DNA from: Candidatus Mancarchaeum sp.
Lineage (GTDB): Archaea; Micrarchaeota; Micrarchaeia; Micrarchaeales; Micrarchaeaceae
Direction: 5' to 3'
Length of the DNA: 14,431 nucleotides
Assembly: GCA_027364995.1 (NCBI GenBank)
Contig: DAHXOG010000010.1
Location: 1 to 14,431 of the forward strand
Shown: positions 8,227 to 14,210 of the stretch, piece by piece
Layout of the letters: every line of letters begins with the position of its first letter
How positions within the stretch are numbered: position 1 is the stretch's first letter
Notes under the pieces: generated by a model
Told to the model about the DNA's origin: nothing
The model's database searches: none
What the model saw: only the letters and a program-made list of their open reading frames with translations
Translations under genes and position numbers: made by a program

Positions 8227-8868
8227 TCAGCCATGCGTAGCCTCGTATATTTCTGCGATTCCCCTTATAAGGATGTAAGCGGTCAGTATGCCTATTAATA
8301 TGTAGCCGATCCACAGTGGATATTCAAGCACATACACCAGCGTAAGGTACGCGAATGTAACGAATTTTGTTATCTGTATGCCGGCCCTGCTTGCATTGGA
8401 GGCGTATAACGCCCTTGCTATTTTGGAATGCATTTTCGAGGATGTGCCCTTTGCACCTAGCAGTGCGTCAGCAAACGAATGCCTTATTATGATTATGAAC
8501 AATACGAAAAGCGGCACTATGCCAAGATACGTAAACGTTACCCAAAGAACATATTCGCTTATCCTGTCCCCTGCGATGTCTATCCTTGGGCCATACGGTG
8601 CAGATTCGGAAGCCTTCTGCTTTATCTTATGCACTATGTCCCATTCCTTCTTGTTTCCAGTTGCGGCCCTTACATAAGTGATAAATCCTATCTTGCCATT
8701 GCTCTCTTCCCTTACTGCAAAATATCCATCTATTGCATCAGAAAGCATTGCTACTGCTAGCAGGAATATTATTATGAACGCGTTGAATCTTACTATTACA
8801 AGATACGCAAGCGCTATTATCAATGCAGTCCTGAGGTATGTTACCAGATCCGCGCTTCTTATTCTCAT
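8227..8868 (-). CDS. CDP-alcohol phosphatidyltransferase-like membrane enzyme
   Basis: This membrane protein of 213 residues is probably of the CDP-alcohol phosphotransferase superfamily, which joins a CDP-activated lipid (or alcohol) to an alcohol with release of CMP. The signature is visible but split: DAIDGYFAVR (D44, D47, G48, A51) and GPRIDIAGD (G93, D97, D101). This gives the D-x2-D-G-x2-A and G-x3-D-x3-D halves with all four aspartates. Normally about 8 residues separate the halves; here about 39 do, with a charged, soluble-looking insertion. Hydrophobic spans lie around residues 12-28, 30-46, 107-130 and 165-205. It starts 38 bases after cysN on the same strand and is probably the last gene of the regulator-cysD-cysN unit. 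An archaetidyl-type head-group enzyme is likely; the substrate is unknown. The insertion may define a subfamily. Confidence 0.8.
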   Translation of the reverse strand: MRIRSADLVTYLRTALIIALAYLVIVRFNAFIIIFLLAVAMLSDAIDGYFAVREESNGKIGFITYVRAATGNKKEWDIVHKIKQKASESAPYGPRIDIAGDRISEYVLWVTFTYLGIVPLFVLFIIIIRHSFADALLGAKGTSSKMHSKIARALYASNASRAGIQITKFVTFAYLTLVYVLEYPLWIGYILIGILTAYILIRGIAEIYEATHG

Positions 8869-8906: not shown

Positions 8907-10142
8907 TCAGCCGATCGCCTTCTCTACAATGCCTATTCCGGAGAACTCGTTCCCACTGTAGAAAACGAACCTGCCCAGCTCCCTGAAGCTTGAAAACTCT
9001 TCCAATGCAACCTTGTCCTTGAGCCTTATCACACATTCTCCAGCATCCAGCTCCAAAGGCATTTTCACGTCATCCTTTACTGTGCCTGTTGTGGTGTCCA
9101 AAACCTTGTCTATCCTTACTGTGCCCTCTACTGCGTTTCCGTTGAACCTGAGCTCTACCTTGTTCTTTATGGGCTTCACGAAAAACATCATTACGCTTAC
9201 CATCCTGGCCGCCTTTGTGCGGTTTGAATTGCTTATTATGGAGCCCCTCATATTGCCATTGATATTGCCGGTGTCTGCGGCCATATCTATTGCTATATTC
9301 TCCTCTTTCGTTGCGCTTTTGGCTACCCTTCCGTTAACATAAAGGCTTTTTATAACCACATTCTTATTCGCTGGAAGCACTTTTACCTTGGAGCCGACTT
9401 CAATCTTTCCGCTAAGCATCTTTGCGGTGTACGCAACGCCATTTTTAGTATCTATTGTACCCTGTATTATCGCCCTCACGTAATTGTCGTTTGCTCCGTT
9501 TTTGTTATAGCACGTAGCGAGCAGATCCATCAATGGCTTGCCCCTATACCATGACATATTCTCGGATTTTGAAACCAGGTTCTCCGACTTATAAGCGGAT
9601 ATCGGAACAAAGTTTACCTTTTGCTTATGCAAGCCTATGCTGTCTAGGTATGGCTCTATTTCGCTCTTTATGCTGTAGAACCTGTTTTGATCATATTGCA
9701 CTGCATCCATCTTGTTTACCGCTATTATAAAGTGCTCTATGCCAAGCATCTTCGCTATGAACACGTGCCTCTTCGTCTGCGCCATTATTCCTTCATCCAT
9801 ATCCGCCGAGATTACAAGCACGGCTGTTTTGGCGTATGCGGCTCCGCTTAGCATGTTCTTTATGAGCTCCTCATGCCCTGGCACGTCTATGAATTCGAAG
9901 GCCTTGTTCTTGTACTTTATCTGGGCCCTTGCTGTGTCTATTGTAAGTCCGCCTTCCCTCTCTTCCGAGAAAGCATCAAGGATGTAAGCAGGCTCAAACC
10001 TCCTGCCTAACTTCTTGCTCGTCTTTTTCGCATCGTTGACGCGCTCTTCCGTCGATGAGCCTGTGCTCATCAATAAGGAGCCTATGAGAGTCGATTTGCC
10101 GTGGTCTTTGTGCCCGAGCAGCGTTATCTGTTCAATGTGCAT
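8907..10142 (-). CDS. cysN: Sulfate adenylyltransferase subunit 1 (GTPase)
   Basis: This EF-1A-like GTPase of 411 residues is called CysN, the regulatory half of the CysDN ATP sulfurylase, whose GTP hydrolysis drives formation of adenylyl sulfate (APS). GTPase motifs are complete: P-loop GHKDHGKST (10-18), switch I Thr67 in EEREGGLTID, DVPGHE (86-91), NKMD (143-146) and an SAYKSEN G5 region. ENMSWYRGKPLMDLL corresponds to the CysN SESMPWYSGPTLLEVL region. Two beta-barrel domains follow, ending LGRFVFYSGNEFSGIGIV. EF-1A itself is the main alternative, but adjacency to cysD and the short N-terminus favour CysN. No APS kinase domain is fused. The ATG at 10142 is nine bases after the cysD stop, and TGAGGT spanning that stop is a likely ribosome binding site, so the pair is translationally coupled. 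Confidence 0.88.
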   Translation of the reverse strand: MHIEQITLLGHKDHGKSTLIGSLLMSTGSSTEERVNDAKKTSKKLGRRFEPAYILDAFSEEREGGLTIDTARAQIKYKNKAFEFIDVPGHEELIKNMLSGAAYAKTAVLVISADMDEGIMAQTKRHVFIAKMLGIEHFIIAVNKMDAVQYDQNRFYSIKSEIEPYLDSIGLHKQKVNFVPISAYKSENLVSKSENMSWYRGKPLMDLLATCYNKNGANDNYVRAIIQGTIDTKNGVAYTAKMLSGKIEVGSKVKVLPANKNVVIKSLYVNGRVAKSATKEENIAIDMAADTGNINGNMRGSIISNSNRTKAARMVSVMMFFVKPIKNKVELRFNGNAVEGTVRIDKVLDTTTGTVKDDVKMPLELDAGECVIRLKDKVALEEFSSFRELGRFVFYSGNEFSGIGIVEKAIG

Positions 10143-10151
10143 GCAACAACC

Positions 10152-10940
10152 TCACATGTAGCCCAGTGCCCTGAGCTTCTCCATTATATAGGCCGTTTCC
10201 TTATCCTGTTCCCTGCCGCTCCTCTCTTCTTTTTTAGTGCTCTTGAGCTCCTTTATTATCTTGTCTATGCTGTCAGCATTGGATTCTACAGGCACGGTGC
10301 AATGCGTGCATCCAAGGCTTCTGTACCTCATGCCATTCCTTGCGAGGTATAAGCTGTTTATCGGGATCCTTTGCTTTTTGATATAATTCCAAATATCAAT
10401 CTCGTTCCAATCCAGGAGAGGATGTATCCTTATGTGGCCTCCCTTCTCCGGTTTTCTCCAATAGTCGTTCCAGAGCTCCGCAGGCTGCTCCTTGTAATTC
10501 CACTTGAACTCCTTTGTCCTGGGCGATACGTAACGCTCCTTCCCCCTTATTCCGTGCTCGTCCCTCCTTATTGAGACTATAAGCGCGTCGAACCCGTATT
10601 CTTTCATCACCTTTTTCAGAGCCTGGGTTTTGTTTGCCCCGCAGCATGCATATCCCGATACTTCGGGCTTTATCTCGCTTTTCTGCACTATAAGGTCCAG
10701 ATCCCACTGTTTCGCCAGCTTCTCCCTGAATTCGTAGGTCTCAGGGAAATCTATTCCGTTGTCTATGTGTATTACGGGGAACGGAACCTTGTTCATAAAT
10801 GCCTTCCTGGCAAGCGCAAGCATCGCTGTGCTGTCCTTGCCCATGCTCCATAACGCAGCGATATTCTTGAAGCGCTCCTTAGCCTCCCTTAATATGTATA
10901 CGCTTTTTCCTTCCAACTCACTTAAATTTTGCTCTATCAT
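10152..10940 (-). CDS. cysD: Sulfate adenylyltransferase subunit 2, with APS-reductase-like cysteines
   Basis: This PP-loop protein (262 residues from the ATG at 10940) matches CysD, the catalytic half of ATP sulfurylase. It carries SMGKDST (32-38) for ATP pyrophosphate, LARKAF, HIDNGIDF, IRRDE, KERYVSPR, ELWNDY, RIHPLLDWNEIDIW and the CysD-type end PVESNADSIDKIIKEL followed by ERSGREQDKE. The first residues align well with E. coli CysD, so ATG 10940 is preferred to an in-frame TTG at 10958. Unusually it also has Cys99-Cys100 in CCGANKTQAL and Cys211/Cys214 in LGCTHCTVPV. These stand in the register of the CCxxRKxxPL and GCxxCTRPV cluster-binding motifs of APS reductases. E. coli CysD lacks three of these four cysteines. 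An iron-sulfur or zinc site is possible. The C-terminal tail KLRALGYM is nearly repeated in the upstream regulator. Confidence 0.9.
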   Translation of the reverse strand: MIEQNLSELEGKSVYILREAKERFKNIAALWSMGKDSTAMLALARKAFMNKVPFPVIHIDNGIDFPETYEFREKLAKQWDLDLIVQKSEIKPEVSGYACCGANKTQALKKVMKEYGFDALIVSIRRDEHGIRGKERYVSPRTKEFKWNYKEQPAELWNDYWRKPEKGGHIRIHPLLDWNEIDIWNYIKKQRIPINSLYLARNGMRYRSLGCTHCTVPVESNADSIDKIIKELKSTKKEERSGREQDKETAYIMEKLRALGYM

Positions 10941-10985
10941 ATAACCAACTTGCAACAATATGTATGGATTATCATCAATGTGCCA

Positions 10986-11216
10986 TCATTGTATATAGCC
11001 AAGCGCCTTAAGCTTCTTTACGACCTCGCTGTCTTCGTTCTGCTTGCCCTTTTTGCATGCATTAAGCTCCGCAGTAGTCTCTCTCAAAACATAGGTAGCA
11101 TAATCAGATACCGAAGAGAACCCTGTCTTTTCTATGCGCTTGCTTATGCTGTCAAATAGCGGCGTCGGTATTGTTATTGTAGTATATTTGCGCTTCTCCT
11201 TCTCTTGTTTTGCCAT
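10986..11216 (-). CDS. Ribbon-helix-helix (CopG-like) regulator with CysD-like tail
   Basis: This small DNA-binding protein of 76 residues has a basic start (MAKQEKEKRK), a strand YTTITIP (about 11-17) that would enter the major groove in a dimer, helix A PLFDSISKRIEKTG and helix B SVSDYATYVLRETT, the ribbon-helix-helix fold. After a polar linker it ends DSEVVKKLKALGYIQ, almost the same as the CysD end MEKLRALGYM. The gene heads the cysD-cysN unit; cysD starts 45 bases downstream. A BoxA (11261-11268) and an array of AATGTT/AACATT half-sites (11233-11260) lie in front, so autoregulation and control of cysDN are likely. The signal sensed is unknown. No metal or ligand site is evident. The ATG at 11216 is preferred as it fits the promoter spacing. 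Confidence 0.88.
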   Translation of the reverse strand: MAKQEKEKRKYTTITIPTPLFDSISKRIEKTGFSSVSDYATYVLRETTAELNACKKGKQNEDSEVVKKLKALGYIQ

Positions 11217-11357: not shown

Positions 11358-11930
11358 TTATGGCGGTGCTAACAGGTGGCTGTATACTGCCCCATAGCCT
11401 ATTACCAATGCTGCTAATGCCGTTAGAATCAATAGCGCTGCAAGCAGGCAATACGCATACTTGCCTCCCTGTGTCTTTGGGTTCAAATATACCATAGGTG
11501 AAAGCAGTCCTGAAAGGCCTGCAAACACATAGAATCCTACTGCAAGCACTTTGTCCAATCCTGTTTCCAAACCAGGTATGCTTATTATCCCGAATGCCTC
11601 AATAAGTATGTATATTCCCAATAAGAATCCCAGCCCTGAAAGCACTTTAAAGTCCATGTTCTTGAATATCATTATTGCAGCAGAGACCATTATGATTCCT
11701 AAAAACAGTATCGGATCCCCGAACAGTATGTTATACGCGCCAGGGAGTGGCCATGTGAAAGACATGACGAAGCCGCTTACAGCATCGAATATTCCAAGCA
11801 TAAGCATTGGGACAGCCAAGCTTTGTATGCTCTTTTTCTGTCTTACAACCATTATGAAGTACAACGCTATGATAGCGGCGCTAGCTCCTGCCGCAAGCAA
11901 CATTACAGCCAAAGAATCAACAAATGCCAT
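11358..11930 (-). CDS. DUF981-like archaeal membrane protein
   Basis: This is a hydrophobic protein of 190 residues with about six membrane spans and short polar loops. The pattern MAFVDSLAVMLL at the start, a basic loop VVRQKKS, then LGIFDAVSGFVMSFTWPLPG and YNILFGDPILFLG strongly reminds me of the DUF981 family of archaeal membrane proteins, whose function is unknown. That assignment is from memory of the pattern. I start at the ATG at 11930 because GTGAT lies just upstream and a BoxA (11961-11968) predicts a start near 11939. An in-frame ATG at 11945 would lie above that point. The gene is divergent from an HxlR-type regulator with which it shares a promoter region of about 60 bases, so the regulator may control it. 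A T-rich terminator follows. Confidence 0.8.
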   Translation of the reverse strand: MAFVDSLAVMLLAAGASAAIIALYFIMVVRQKKSIQSLAVPMLMLGIFDAVSGFVMSFTWPLPGAYNILFGDPILFLGIIMVSAAIMIFKNMDFKVLSGLGFLLGIYILIEAFGIISIPGLETGLDKVLAVGFYVFAGLSGLLSPMVYLNPKTQGGKYAYCLLAALLILTALAALVIGYGAVYSHLLAPP

Positions 11931-11960
11931 ATTTATCACATACATATACGGGAATAAGAG

Positions 11961-12410: not shown

Positions 12411-14210
12411 CTAGCCGGACTTAATCCTATTGGCCTTTTTATCCTTCTTCAAAATTCCCTTTCTAAGCATCTGCTCTATGTGCCATCGTGTGCCTTCGTA
12501 AGACAGACCATGGTATTCAAGCTCTTTCTTTATCTCATAAACCCTATTCCTGCCTTTTTCCACAGAGTTTAATATCTGCTTTTCCACATCCGTGTTTCTT
12601 ACCCTCTTTTTCCTGGCTTTATCGTGCATTTCAAAAACCGTCCTTGCATCATCAAGCAACTCAGTGCTTTCAGTGTATGCTTTAATGCCTTGGTAATTTC
12701 TATCGCTTTTTATGGCAGTTTGTATGGCTTCATAGATTTTCATGCCATTATTGCTGTATCTATGAGATTCCAATGCTATATCATAAAGCCAAGCCAATGC
12801 ACTGTCCCATACAAGCAATGTATTATCATTTGCCCTTATCGACGAACGCTTCTCATTCCATACAACATTGCGTTTAAGGATTCCGGCTTTTGATAGCATA
12901 ACCAAATATTTTGATGACTGGTCTAAATCAGCTCCCGAGACTTTTGCTATGTCATGCCTGCTTACCTCATTTCCAGTGTTCTTATTAATAAAATCAATGG
13001 CTTTCGATAATACTCTTGCGGTATTCGGCCTGCTAATAAAGCCTTTCTCTACGAGTTCCGCAAAGCTTGTGCTTCTCATTATCTCATACGATGCCGGTTT
13101 CCTAATGCCCGAGCTCGGACTGGAATTATAATCCAGAATATGCTTTTCAGAAAACTTTGTCCTAATCTCATGCCTTACGCTTTTGCTATCCAATATATTT
13201 TGTATCTCGTGCAATTGGAACTCGGATCCAGGATTTTCCGCCAGCAATTTTATCAATCCAAAAATATTGTGTGCCTGCGCAACACGCTGGCCAGGGGCCA
13301 CCGAAGTTGAAAATATGTCATCTAATGTAAGCCCTACCCCTGTCAAATGGTTGGCCATTGCCATTATTCCGTGGGCGGATATAAAATCAAAGATTTCATG
13401 TGATTCGGGTTTTGAATAAACCGTAATATCATTGCCATCATGCACCTTTGTACTGCTTTCTACGGCTCCTATTGAAACAAGGCTTTCCATCACAGATTTT
13501 ATGTTTATGTGCTTATCGATCTTACTGATTTTTGTATTTAAAATATCAGCCATGCGCTTTGCTATCATAGGCCTGGTGTATTCTACTGGATACTCCATGC
13601 AGATGTATATCAATGGTTTTATGCTCGAGCCAAGCATCATGGTAAATATGGAAAGGATCTCCTCAATTTTTCCATTTGTTACATATTTAGAGCCGTTAAT
13701 CTGCACATTGGCATCCTTGCTGTGTTCCTCTTTAGCTTCCTCTTTTAAGGCGCCAGGCCCTGCAATGTCCTCATGCTGCTTAACGCTTGATGCATAGTCA
13801 TTATTGTATAAACCCAATCCACCATTTTCAGATTCTTTATTCTCCAAATCCCTGAAAAGCTTGCTATAAAAATCCTCAATATTCTCATCTTCGCGTATGG
13901 GTTTTTTGTCTTGTGCGATGAGCCTTTCTATATTATCATTTCTGATCCTCCATTTGTTCAGCCTCCACGTCTTGCCATTATATAGCGTCTCAACGGTCTT
14001 TACGGTATCGACTATGCCTATCTCTTCCATGGAATAAAATATGTCCCTGTCATAATTTTCAAGCATGTTGTCTATTATCTCCGTGCCATAGCCGAAAAAG
14101 CCAAGCAGATATTCAGCTATATCTACGGCATCGTCTTTAGCCATATCCAAGCCCTTGCCCTTATAACTAGAGATTATCGCAATGGCTAGCTTTTCTACTG
14201 GGTTTTTCAT
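12411..14210 (-). CDS. Multi-winged-helix protein with DUF6015-like N-terminus
   Basis: This is a 599-residue soluble protein. Residues 1-95 (GFFGYGTEIIDNML, YDRDIFYSMEEIGI, NGKTWRLNKWRI) resemble the DUF6015 family of archaeal winged-helix-like domains; that name is from memory. A polar, acidic linker (about 96-175) follows. The remainder reads as a chain of helix-turn-helix or winged segments near 195-265, 310-365, 398-455 (VSRHDIAKVSGADLDQSSKYL, AGILKRN) and 540-599 (VYEIKKELEYHGLSYEGTRW, LRKGILKKDKK), separated by helical stretches. A very basic patch (KARKKRVR, 531-538) precedes the last one. It is probably a DNA-binding regulator or chromatin-associated factor; no enzymatic motif is seen. 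It is convergent with the HxlR-like gene (16-base gap) and divergent from a secreted-protein gene. The ATG at 14210 is the only good start. Its DNA is more AT-rich than carAB. Confidence 0.8.
   Translation of the reverse strand: MKNPVEKLAIAIISSYKGKGLDMAKDDAVDIAEYLLGFFGYGTEIIDNMLENYDRDIFYSMEEIGIVDTVKTVETLYNGKTWRLNKWRIRNDNIERLIAQDKKPIREDENIEDFYSKLFRDLENKESENGGLGLYNNDYASSVKQHEDIAGPGALKEEAKEEHSKDANVQINGSKYVTNGKIEEILSIFTMMLGSSIKPLIYICMEYPVEYTRPMIAKRMADILNTKISKIDKHINIKSVMESLVSIGAVESSTKVHDGNDITVYSKPESHEIFDFISAHGIMAMANHLTGVGLTLDDIFSTSVAPGQRVAQAHNIFGLIKLLAENPGSEFQLHEIQNILDSKSVRHEIRTKFSEKHILDYNSSPSSGIRKPASYEIMRSTSFAELVEKGFISRPNTARVLSKAIDFINKNTGNEVSRHDIAKVSGADLDQSSKYLVMLSKAGILKRNVVWNEKRSSIRANDNTLLVWDSALAWLYDIALESHRYSNNGMKIYEAIQTAIKSDRNYQGIKAYTESTELLDDARTVFEMHDKARKKRVRNTDVEKQILNSVEKGRNRVYEIKKELEYHGLSYEGTRWHIEQMLRKGILKKDKKANRIKSG

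What the first reader, a model, noticed from the sequence alone, without database searches (positions are those of the whole stretch)
10152..10940. CysD homologue carrying the CC...CxxC cysteine set of iron-sulfur APS reductases
The protein is CysD-like over its whole length, yet CCGANKTQAL and LGCTHCTVPV fall in the register of the APS reductase motifs CCxxRKxxPL and GCxxCTRPV. Those four cysteines hold a [4Fe-4S] cluster in assimilatory APS reductases. E. coli CysD has only the GC of the second motif. This may be a metal-containing ATP sulfurylase subunit, an intermediate between the two PP-loop families, or an enzyme with a different reaction. The spacing between the two pairs (about 110 residues) is longer than in the short APS reductases, because the CysD insertion lies between them.
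Basis: partly seen in the sequence, partly recalled or inferred. Interest (0 to 1): 0.72.

Follow-up and report, generated by a model that had tools for sequence, protein, structure and literature searches.

The report
Sulfate-activating enzyme with likely iron-sulfur site
A tiny archaeon carries a version of the sulfate-activating enzyme CysD that keeps the four cysteines which hold an iron-sulfur cluster in a related sulfur enzyme, so the familiar E. coli enzyme may be a stripped-down form of a metal-containing one.

Summary
The gene is on the minus strand (10152-10940, ATG start, 262 aa); its only four cysteines (C99, C100, C211, C214) stay in the columns of the cluster cysteines of APS reductases even when masked before realignment. 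Both pairs are in 121 of 121 closest proteins; 120 of those 121 have no other cysteine. The site is not private to this archaeon: 274 of 375 sampled CysD-like proteins, archaeal and bacterial, have all four (sampled by similarity). Others keep three, two, one (E. coli type) or none; the second CxxC cysteine never occurs without CC (275 against 0).

It is a CysD by broad family score, predicted fold, tail and GTPase partner, and lacks the ECG motif of the reductases. Best reading: a GTP-coupled ATP sulfurylase with a structural [4Fe-4S] cluster. Cluster and activity are inferred; sulfur distances could not be measured.

In 60 genomes (own one included) no sulfite reductase, sulfotransferase (two families) or convincing APS kinase was found. 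Alkaline-phosphatase-superfamily genes lie near cysD more often than chance (23 against 2.65), pointing to a non-reductive use of APS.

The parts
10152..10940 (-). cysD-like gene, 262 aa from the ATG (TTG at 10958 gives 268 aa)
   Evidence: PRK05253 CysD over cut-off; PF01507
10629..10646 (-). CCGANK: first cysteine pair C99 C100 and the invariant Lys104
   Evidence: Lys in 375 of 375 CysD-like, 8 of 8 CysH and 6 of 6 paralogues
10296..10313 (-). GCTHCT: second cysteine pair C211 and C214
   Evidence: register with APS reductases
8907..10142 (-). cysN-like GTPase, 411 aa, 9 bases downstream of cysD
   Evidence: under the cut-offs of both CysN and EF-1 alpha models; a second, 425-codon relative (31% identity, probably EF-1 alpha itself) lies at G000:C53
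10986..11216 (-). small gene (76 aa) upstream of cysD; looks like a ribbon-helix-helix protein by eye only; ends in KLKALGYIQ like the CysD tail KLRALGYM
   Evidence: no Pfam or NCBIfam match; family found in 46 of 63 named neighbourhoods
8227..8868 (-). CDP-alcohol phosphatidyltransferase-like gene after cysN (context; weak Pfam score)
   Evidence: PF01066, 24 bits against cut-off 22

Best explanation
The gene encodes the catalytic subunit (CysD) of a GTP-coupled ATP sulfurylase, working with the CysN-type GTPase next to it. The PP-loop domain binds ATP and transfers AMP to sulfate to give APS, and GTP hydrolysis by CysN drives the reaction. C99, C100, C211 and C214 ligate a [4Fe-4S] cluster beside the active site, as the equivalent four cysteines do in assimilatory APS reductases; its role is most likely structural and electrostatic (holding the loop with Lys104 near the substrate), not redox. 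The cluster site is shared with APS reductases by descent and has been lost step by step in other CysD lines, E. coli's included. Shown: sequence, register, conservation, the pattern in which the four cysteines are kept, family score, CysN-like neighbour, absence of the reductase motif. Inferred: the cluster, its type, the ATP sulfurylase activity, and the direction of change (loss, not repeated gain).
For: Register independent of the cysteines themselves and in profile-profile comparison (probability 99.8). Quartet in 121 of 121 closest proteins; no other cysteine in 120 of 121. Second CxxC cysteine occurs only together with CC: of 375, 275 have both, 47 have CC without it, 53 have neither it nor a complete CC, and 0 have it without CC. 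The Lys of CCxxxK is invariant in 375 CysD-like, 8 CysH and 6 paralogues. CysD: PRK05253 over cut-off, 1zun_A is the first match by Foldseek and by VIA-align, 2goy_A the second by Foldseek and 2goy_B the fourth by VIA-align, SxGKDS in 374 of 375. CysN-like gene directly downstream with GTPase motifs by eye; cysD followed directly by cysN on the same strand in 56 of 63 named loci, gaps -95 to 66. cysD found in 49 of 60 genomes, own one included, of 0.5-1.2 Mb (51 matches, two of them only the distant paralogue).
Confidence: 0.6

Rival explanations
1. The four cysteines bind zinc (structural Zn(Cys)4) in an otherwise ordinary CysD.
For: Four cysteines as two pairs could bind zinc; PMC10322725 cites a zinc-binding ATP sulfurylase (title seen in its reference list; by recall of the unrelated Sat type).
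Against: The adjacent CC pair in the exact register of the cluster site of APS reductases points to that cofactor.
Confidence: 0.15
2. A repurposed PP-loop enzyme: CysDN-like, but activating another substrate or transferring sulfur (as TtuA, NcsA and LarE do with a [4Fe-4S] cluster), because these genomes have no recognised pathway that uses APS.
For: No SiR (0 of 60), no sulfotransferase of two families (0 of 60 each), no aprA over cut-off (0 of 60; no control genome passed it either), APS kinase only as weak P-loop hits (16 of 60 at E <= 0.001, 5 over cut-off, best 3.7e-5; none in the window's genome). TtuA, NcsA and LarE are among the structural matches.
Against: CysD features (whole-length family score, C-terminal tail, CysN-like partner, SxGKDS) are kept; the four-cysteine cysD of Ilyobacter is in a row with cysC. 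TtuA, NcsA and LarE match at lower Z (12.4-13.9) than 1zun_A (24.0).
Confidence: 0.17
3. An APS reductase or a bifunctional sulfurylase-reductase.
For: Shares the cluster cysteines and invariant Lys with APS reductases.
Against: ECG motif in 0 of 375 CysD-like against 8 of 8 CysH; 374 of 375 have no cysteine in the last 45 residues. No sulfite reductase domain in 60 genomes.
Confidence: 0.03
4. The quartet was gained within CysD by convergence and is not the APS reductase site by descent.
For: The four-cysteine CysD rows could be one clade (p-AU 0.354); the root lies on long branches.
Against: Exact register of all four plus the Lys, and the residual third cysteine in E. coli-type proteins.
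Confidence: 0.25

Closest known systems
CysDN, heterodimeric GTP-coupled ATP sulfurylase (E. coli; Pseudomonas syringae 1zun)
   Same: Broad family score, fold, PP-loop SxGKDS, C-terminal tail, adjacent GTPase gene
   Different: Has the CC..CxxC quartet that E. coli-type CysD lacks (H-T-C-L); lacks an insertion of about 28 residues between the motifs
Assimilatory APS reductase, CysH with [4Fe-4S] (2goy, 7lhs)
   Same: Four cluster cysteines and the Lys of CCxxxK in register; related fold. A passage of PMC10322725 states one [4Fe-4S] per monomer for the Pseudomonas aeruginosa enzyme
   Different: No catalytic ECG motif; longer spacing; CysN-like partner; under the APS-reductase cut-off (62.4 against 235.3)
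Cysteine-less PF01507 paralogue of some Micrarchaeota (six rows, L143-L148)
   Same: PF01507 fold family, C-terminal LRxLGY tail, same small gene family nearby
   Different: F-N-S-D at the four positions; L148's copy scores best as PAPS reductase but under cut-off; no ECG motif by eye
TtuA/NcsA and LarE [4Fe-4S] PP-loop sulfur transferases
   Same: PP-loop domain with a cluster (structure titles)

Membership tests
CysD (sulfate adenylyltransferase subunit 2) | Passes NCBIfam PRK05253 CysD cut-off over the whole length | tested here: met
   300.7 bits, cut-off 195
CysD (narrow model TIGR02039) | Passes the TIGR02039 cut-off | tested here: not met
   217.6 bits, cut-off 396.6; four-cysteine relatives P0122 and Ilyobacter, and Skermanella, also fail it; E. 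coli passes
CysD | PP-loop SxGKDS and the C-terminal GY[FLM] tail | tested here: met
   SMGKDS and LRALGYM in the query; 374 and 371 of 375 in the set
CysDN | Adjacent CysN-type GTPase | tested here: inconclusive
   8907-10142 has GTPase motifs by eye and is not the genome's only relative of EF-1 alpha, but it misses the cut-offs of both CysN and EF-1 alpha models
CysDN | GTP-stimulated APS synthesis | not testable with these tools
   needs the purified complex
[4Fe-4S] APS reductase (CysH) | CC..CxxC in register | tested here: met
[4Fe-4S] APS reductase (CysH) | C-terminal ECG catalytic motif | tested here: not met
   0 of 375 CysD-like, 8 of 8 CysH
[4Fe-4S] APS reductase (CysH) | Passes TIGR02055 cut-off | tested here: not met
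   62.4 bits, cut-off 235.3
[4Fe-4S] protein | Iron and labile sulfide in the protein | not testable with these tools
   no metal data; sulfur distances not measurable, no coordinates

The most novel reading that the evidence does not exclude
The common ancestor of the ATP sulfurylase CysD and APS reductase was an iron-sulfur protein. Micrarchaeota and a range of bacteria still have the cluster-bearing CysD, while the textbook enzyme is a degraded form. In Micrarchaeota, in which no APS kinase, sulfotransferase or sulfite reductase was recognised, the APS it makes is used directly, without PAPS, by alkaline-phosphatase-superfamily and glycosyltransferase enzymes whose genes often lie nearby, to modify surface glycans.
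Probability: 0.15. Interest if true: 0.85.

Novelty: new variant of a known kind. Interest (0 to 1): 0.6.

Why it matters
As far as I recall, CysD has been treated as the cluster-free counterpart of APS reductase. A large subfamily that keeps the complete cluster site, with relatives that have three, two and one of the cysteines, makes the history of this enzyme pair testable and predicts that many ATP sulfurylases depend on iron and are oxygen-sensitive. Named holders that are cultured, by recall, are Ilyobacter polytropus, Gemmatirosa kalamazoonensis and Sedimentisphaera salicampi, so one purified protein would settle it. In Micrarchaeota it also raises the question of what a very small genome does with activated sulfate that, by the families searched here, it can neither reduce nor transfer.

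Tried and rejected
Rejected: an APS reductase (no ECG motif). Rejected: a chance pair of motifs. Rejected: a feature private to Micrarchaeota. Rejected: the CysN-like gene being the genome's only EF-1 alpha relative.

Led nowhere: distances between the four sulfurs (no coordinates handed out); finding the APS consumer. The aprA matches (40 of 60 at E <= 0.001) are all under the cut-off and I take them for other flavoproteins; in that search no control genome passed the cut-off either (5 of 14 rang below it), so it has no positive control. Controls in the other calls: SiR rang in 11 of 14, APS kinase in 11, each sulfotransferase family in 2. Rfam on the window: none. tRNA: none.

Not proven: independent losses. 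One clade of 21 rows with CC and the fourth cysteine (20 CCCC and P0157, CCRC) was not rejected; the two trees differ in where the Ilyobacter/Gemmatirosa pair and the E. coli type sit; CysH rows are long branches; in the counts of changes P0157 was labelled 'fewer'.

Sampling limits: the 358 P-rows are the query plus the best 120 hits of three searches (in the last two only the 8000 candidates sharing most words were scored), not a random sample; counts of states hold for this sample only. A cruder pattern called both pairs in 113 of 120 of the second search; in the alignment all of those 120 but P0157 have the four cysteines. The Alphaproteobacteria fragment L085 (GCAPCT, N-terminal part missing) was left out of all counts. 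For the tree 53 of the 358 P-rows were kept by identity thresholds, plus 17 other CysD, 6 paralogues and 8 CysH = 84 rows; 70 rows.

Literature: nine searches (PMC open-licence library only) listed no paper that, by title, abstract start or the passages I opened, reports an iron-sulfur CysD. Seen: listings for all; passages for PMC6286981, PMC12153355, PMC10322725 (12 of 24 places) and PMC4438317; no paper was read whole. Subscription papers are not covered. Recalled, from no call: that exactly these cysteines ligate the cluster of APS reductase, the structural or electrostatic role of the nearby Lys, ECG as the catalytic motif, the ribbon-helix-helix look of the small gene, PF16347 as a sulfatase C-terminal domain, and adenylyl-sulfate cleavage by HIT proteins.

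Full report
What is there. The window is part of a 740 kb archaeal genome in 146 contigs whose closest named relatives are Micrarchaeota, for example Candidatus Micrarchaeum sp. A_DKE. The finding's gene reads on the minus strand, 10940 to 10152, from an ATG. It is followed after 9 bases by a CysN-like GTPase (8907-10142) and preceded by a small gene (10986-11216). Its product has four cysteines and no others: C99, C100, C211, C214.

Is the register real? In an unguided alignment of 389 rows the four positions fall on the four cysteines of all six CC..CxxC CysH proteins. Because cysteines could pull the alignment, I masked them in all CysD-like rows of the 84-row set and realigned: the register held in three of three modes, 6 of 6 CysH. 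A profile comparison with the six CysH gives probability 99.8 and pairs CCGANK with the CC..RK motif and LGCTHCT with IGCEPCT (cysteines not masked there).

Is it kept? Both pairs are in 121 of 121 closest proteins, and 120 of those 121 have no further cysteine. The gene itself is in 49 of 60 genomes, own one included (two more, G028 and G033, matched only through a cysteine-less paralogue). Across the phylum 132 of 292 genomes at 60% completeness or more match, four of these only through the paralogue. Nine of the matches lie in the same class but outside the order; eight of these nine have all four cysteines and one (G117) has three.

How wide is it? A search from one of those nine (G138) gave bacterial and archaeal holders by name: Acidobacteriota, Omnitrophica, WOR-3, Sedimentisphaera salicampi, Woesearchaeota, Methanofastidiosum (seven named rows printed, all with CC and CxxC). 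In the plasmid collection Ilyobacter polytropus and Gemmatirosa kalamazoonensis have it, among eight records looked at. Of 375 CysD-like proteins, 274 have all four cysteines. The others form a series at the four columns: CCCI and the like (46 rows with the first three), CSCI or CACI, VCCI, VNCI or VTCI, HTCL in E. coli, Sinorhizobium and Parabacteroides, and none in Skermanella, Roseomonas and Niveispirillum. The second cysteine of CxxC is not found where CC is incomplete (0 of 53), while it is found in 275 of 322 with CC. That is what one expects if the pairs serve one ligand, though relatedness inflates such counts. The Lys of CCxxxK is invariant in all 375, and in the 8 CysH and 6 paralogues, so it belongs to the shared active site and not to the cluster alone.

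Which way did it go? With CysH as outgroup, four-cysteine CysD rows occur in three places and the least number of changes between 'four' and 'fewer' over the 84 rows is 5; on a careful tree of the 70 CysD rows it is 4. This suits an ancestral quartet with repeated loss, but the outgroup branches are long and the data do not reject one clade of 21 rows (p-AU 0.354). I therefore hold ancestral presence as likely, not shown.

What does it do? It is not an APS reductase: the ECG motif is in 8 of 8 CysH and 0 of 375 CysD-like proteins. A GTP-coupled ATP sulfurylase is the direct reading. The use of the product is open. In the 60 genomes there is no sulfite reductase domain, no Sulfotransfer_3 or Sulfotransfer_1, no aprA over cut-off (without a positive control), no second strong PF01507 protein beside CysD (G012, G048 and G051 have weak further hits; in the phylum scan G193 and G263 do have the paralogue beside CysD), and only weak matches to APS kinase (16 of 60, 5 over cut-off, none in the window's genome). 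So APS is probably not reduced. In 63 named neighbourhoods a small-gene family occurs in 46, an unclassified family of about 100 aa in 48, a glycosyltransferase family in 21, a phosphodiesterase family in 16 and a sulfatase family in 15. Across the 49 genomes with cysD, 23 of 115 genes of Pfam PF01663 or PF00884 lie within 10 kb of cysD against 2.65 expected by length, in 22 genomes. This was tested for these two families only, not for glycosyltransferases. In the window itself no gene of the two families lies near cysDN (own-genome matches are on other contigs). The pattern favours a role in sulfated or otherwise modified glycans, with APS itself as possible donor; that last step is speculation.

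What was in print. PMC6286981 (passages, all 11 places for CysD, CysN and iron-sulfur) describes CysDN in ANME archaea and iron-sulfur clusters in APS/PAPS reductases; none of the passages speaks of a cluster in CysD. PMC10322725 (12 of 24 places) describes an unusual PAPS reductase and PAP phosphatase in a methanogen and shows CysDN in a tree legend. PMC12153355 (passages) mentions a sulfate adenylyltransferase gene 'sat' in CPR and DPANN genomes. Nine searches listed no iron-sulfur CysD.

Verdict. A real, conserved and, within those searches, unremarked cluster-type site in a broad CysD subfamily: a new variant of a known enzyme, worth one purification.

Noticed in passing
window 10986-11216 (-) and its relatives in named loci L021-L084: The small protein upstream of cysD ends in the same tail as CysD (KLKALGY / KLRALGYM). 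The tail is in 32 of 46 small proteins, 60 of 60 CysD and 1 of 830 other neighbourhood ORFs, and also in the six cysteine-less paralogues; it may be a shared docking peptide, for instance for CysN.
   Followed up: partly
L143-L148, for example L148:35-829 and L147:8849-9637: A cysteine-less PF01507 paralogue (F-N-S-D at the four positions) with the same C-terminal tail, often beside a sulfatase-family gene and the same small gene; in G028 and G033 it is present where the four-cysteine cysD was not found.
   Followed up: partly
L152:2403-7734 (Ilyobacter polytropus plasmid pILYOP02): Four-cysteine cysD in a row with cysC, an adenylyl-sulfate reductase alpha subunit, a ferredoxin family gene and a GTP-binding gene: a compact sulfate-activation and reduction cluster in a named bacterium.
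   Followed up: no
P0242-P0358 (for example P0242, P0249, P0299): 46 rows have the first three cysteines but not the fourth (CC..C..I); such a site could hold a cluster with an open iron, as in some sulfur transferases.
   Followed up: no
P0252: CysD-like protein of 366 aa listed with PF01507 and PF16347 in one chain; by recall PF16347 is found at the C-terminus of sulfatases, which would fit a link between CysD and sulfatase-type genes.
   Followed up: no
L137:7462-7908 (-): A gene that looks like a HIT-family protein sits between cysD and cysN in genome G138; by recall some HIT proteins cleave adenylyl sulfate.
   Followed up: no
family 2, for example L043:1906-2211: An unclassified protein of about 100 aa is present in 48 of 63 named loci, by eye mostly directly before cysD, but not in the four closest ones (L021-L024) or the window; one member tested had no Pfam match.
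   Followed up: no
window 12411-14210 (-) and 11358-11945 (-): Genes with domains of unknown function DUF6015 and DUF981.
   Followed up: no
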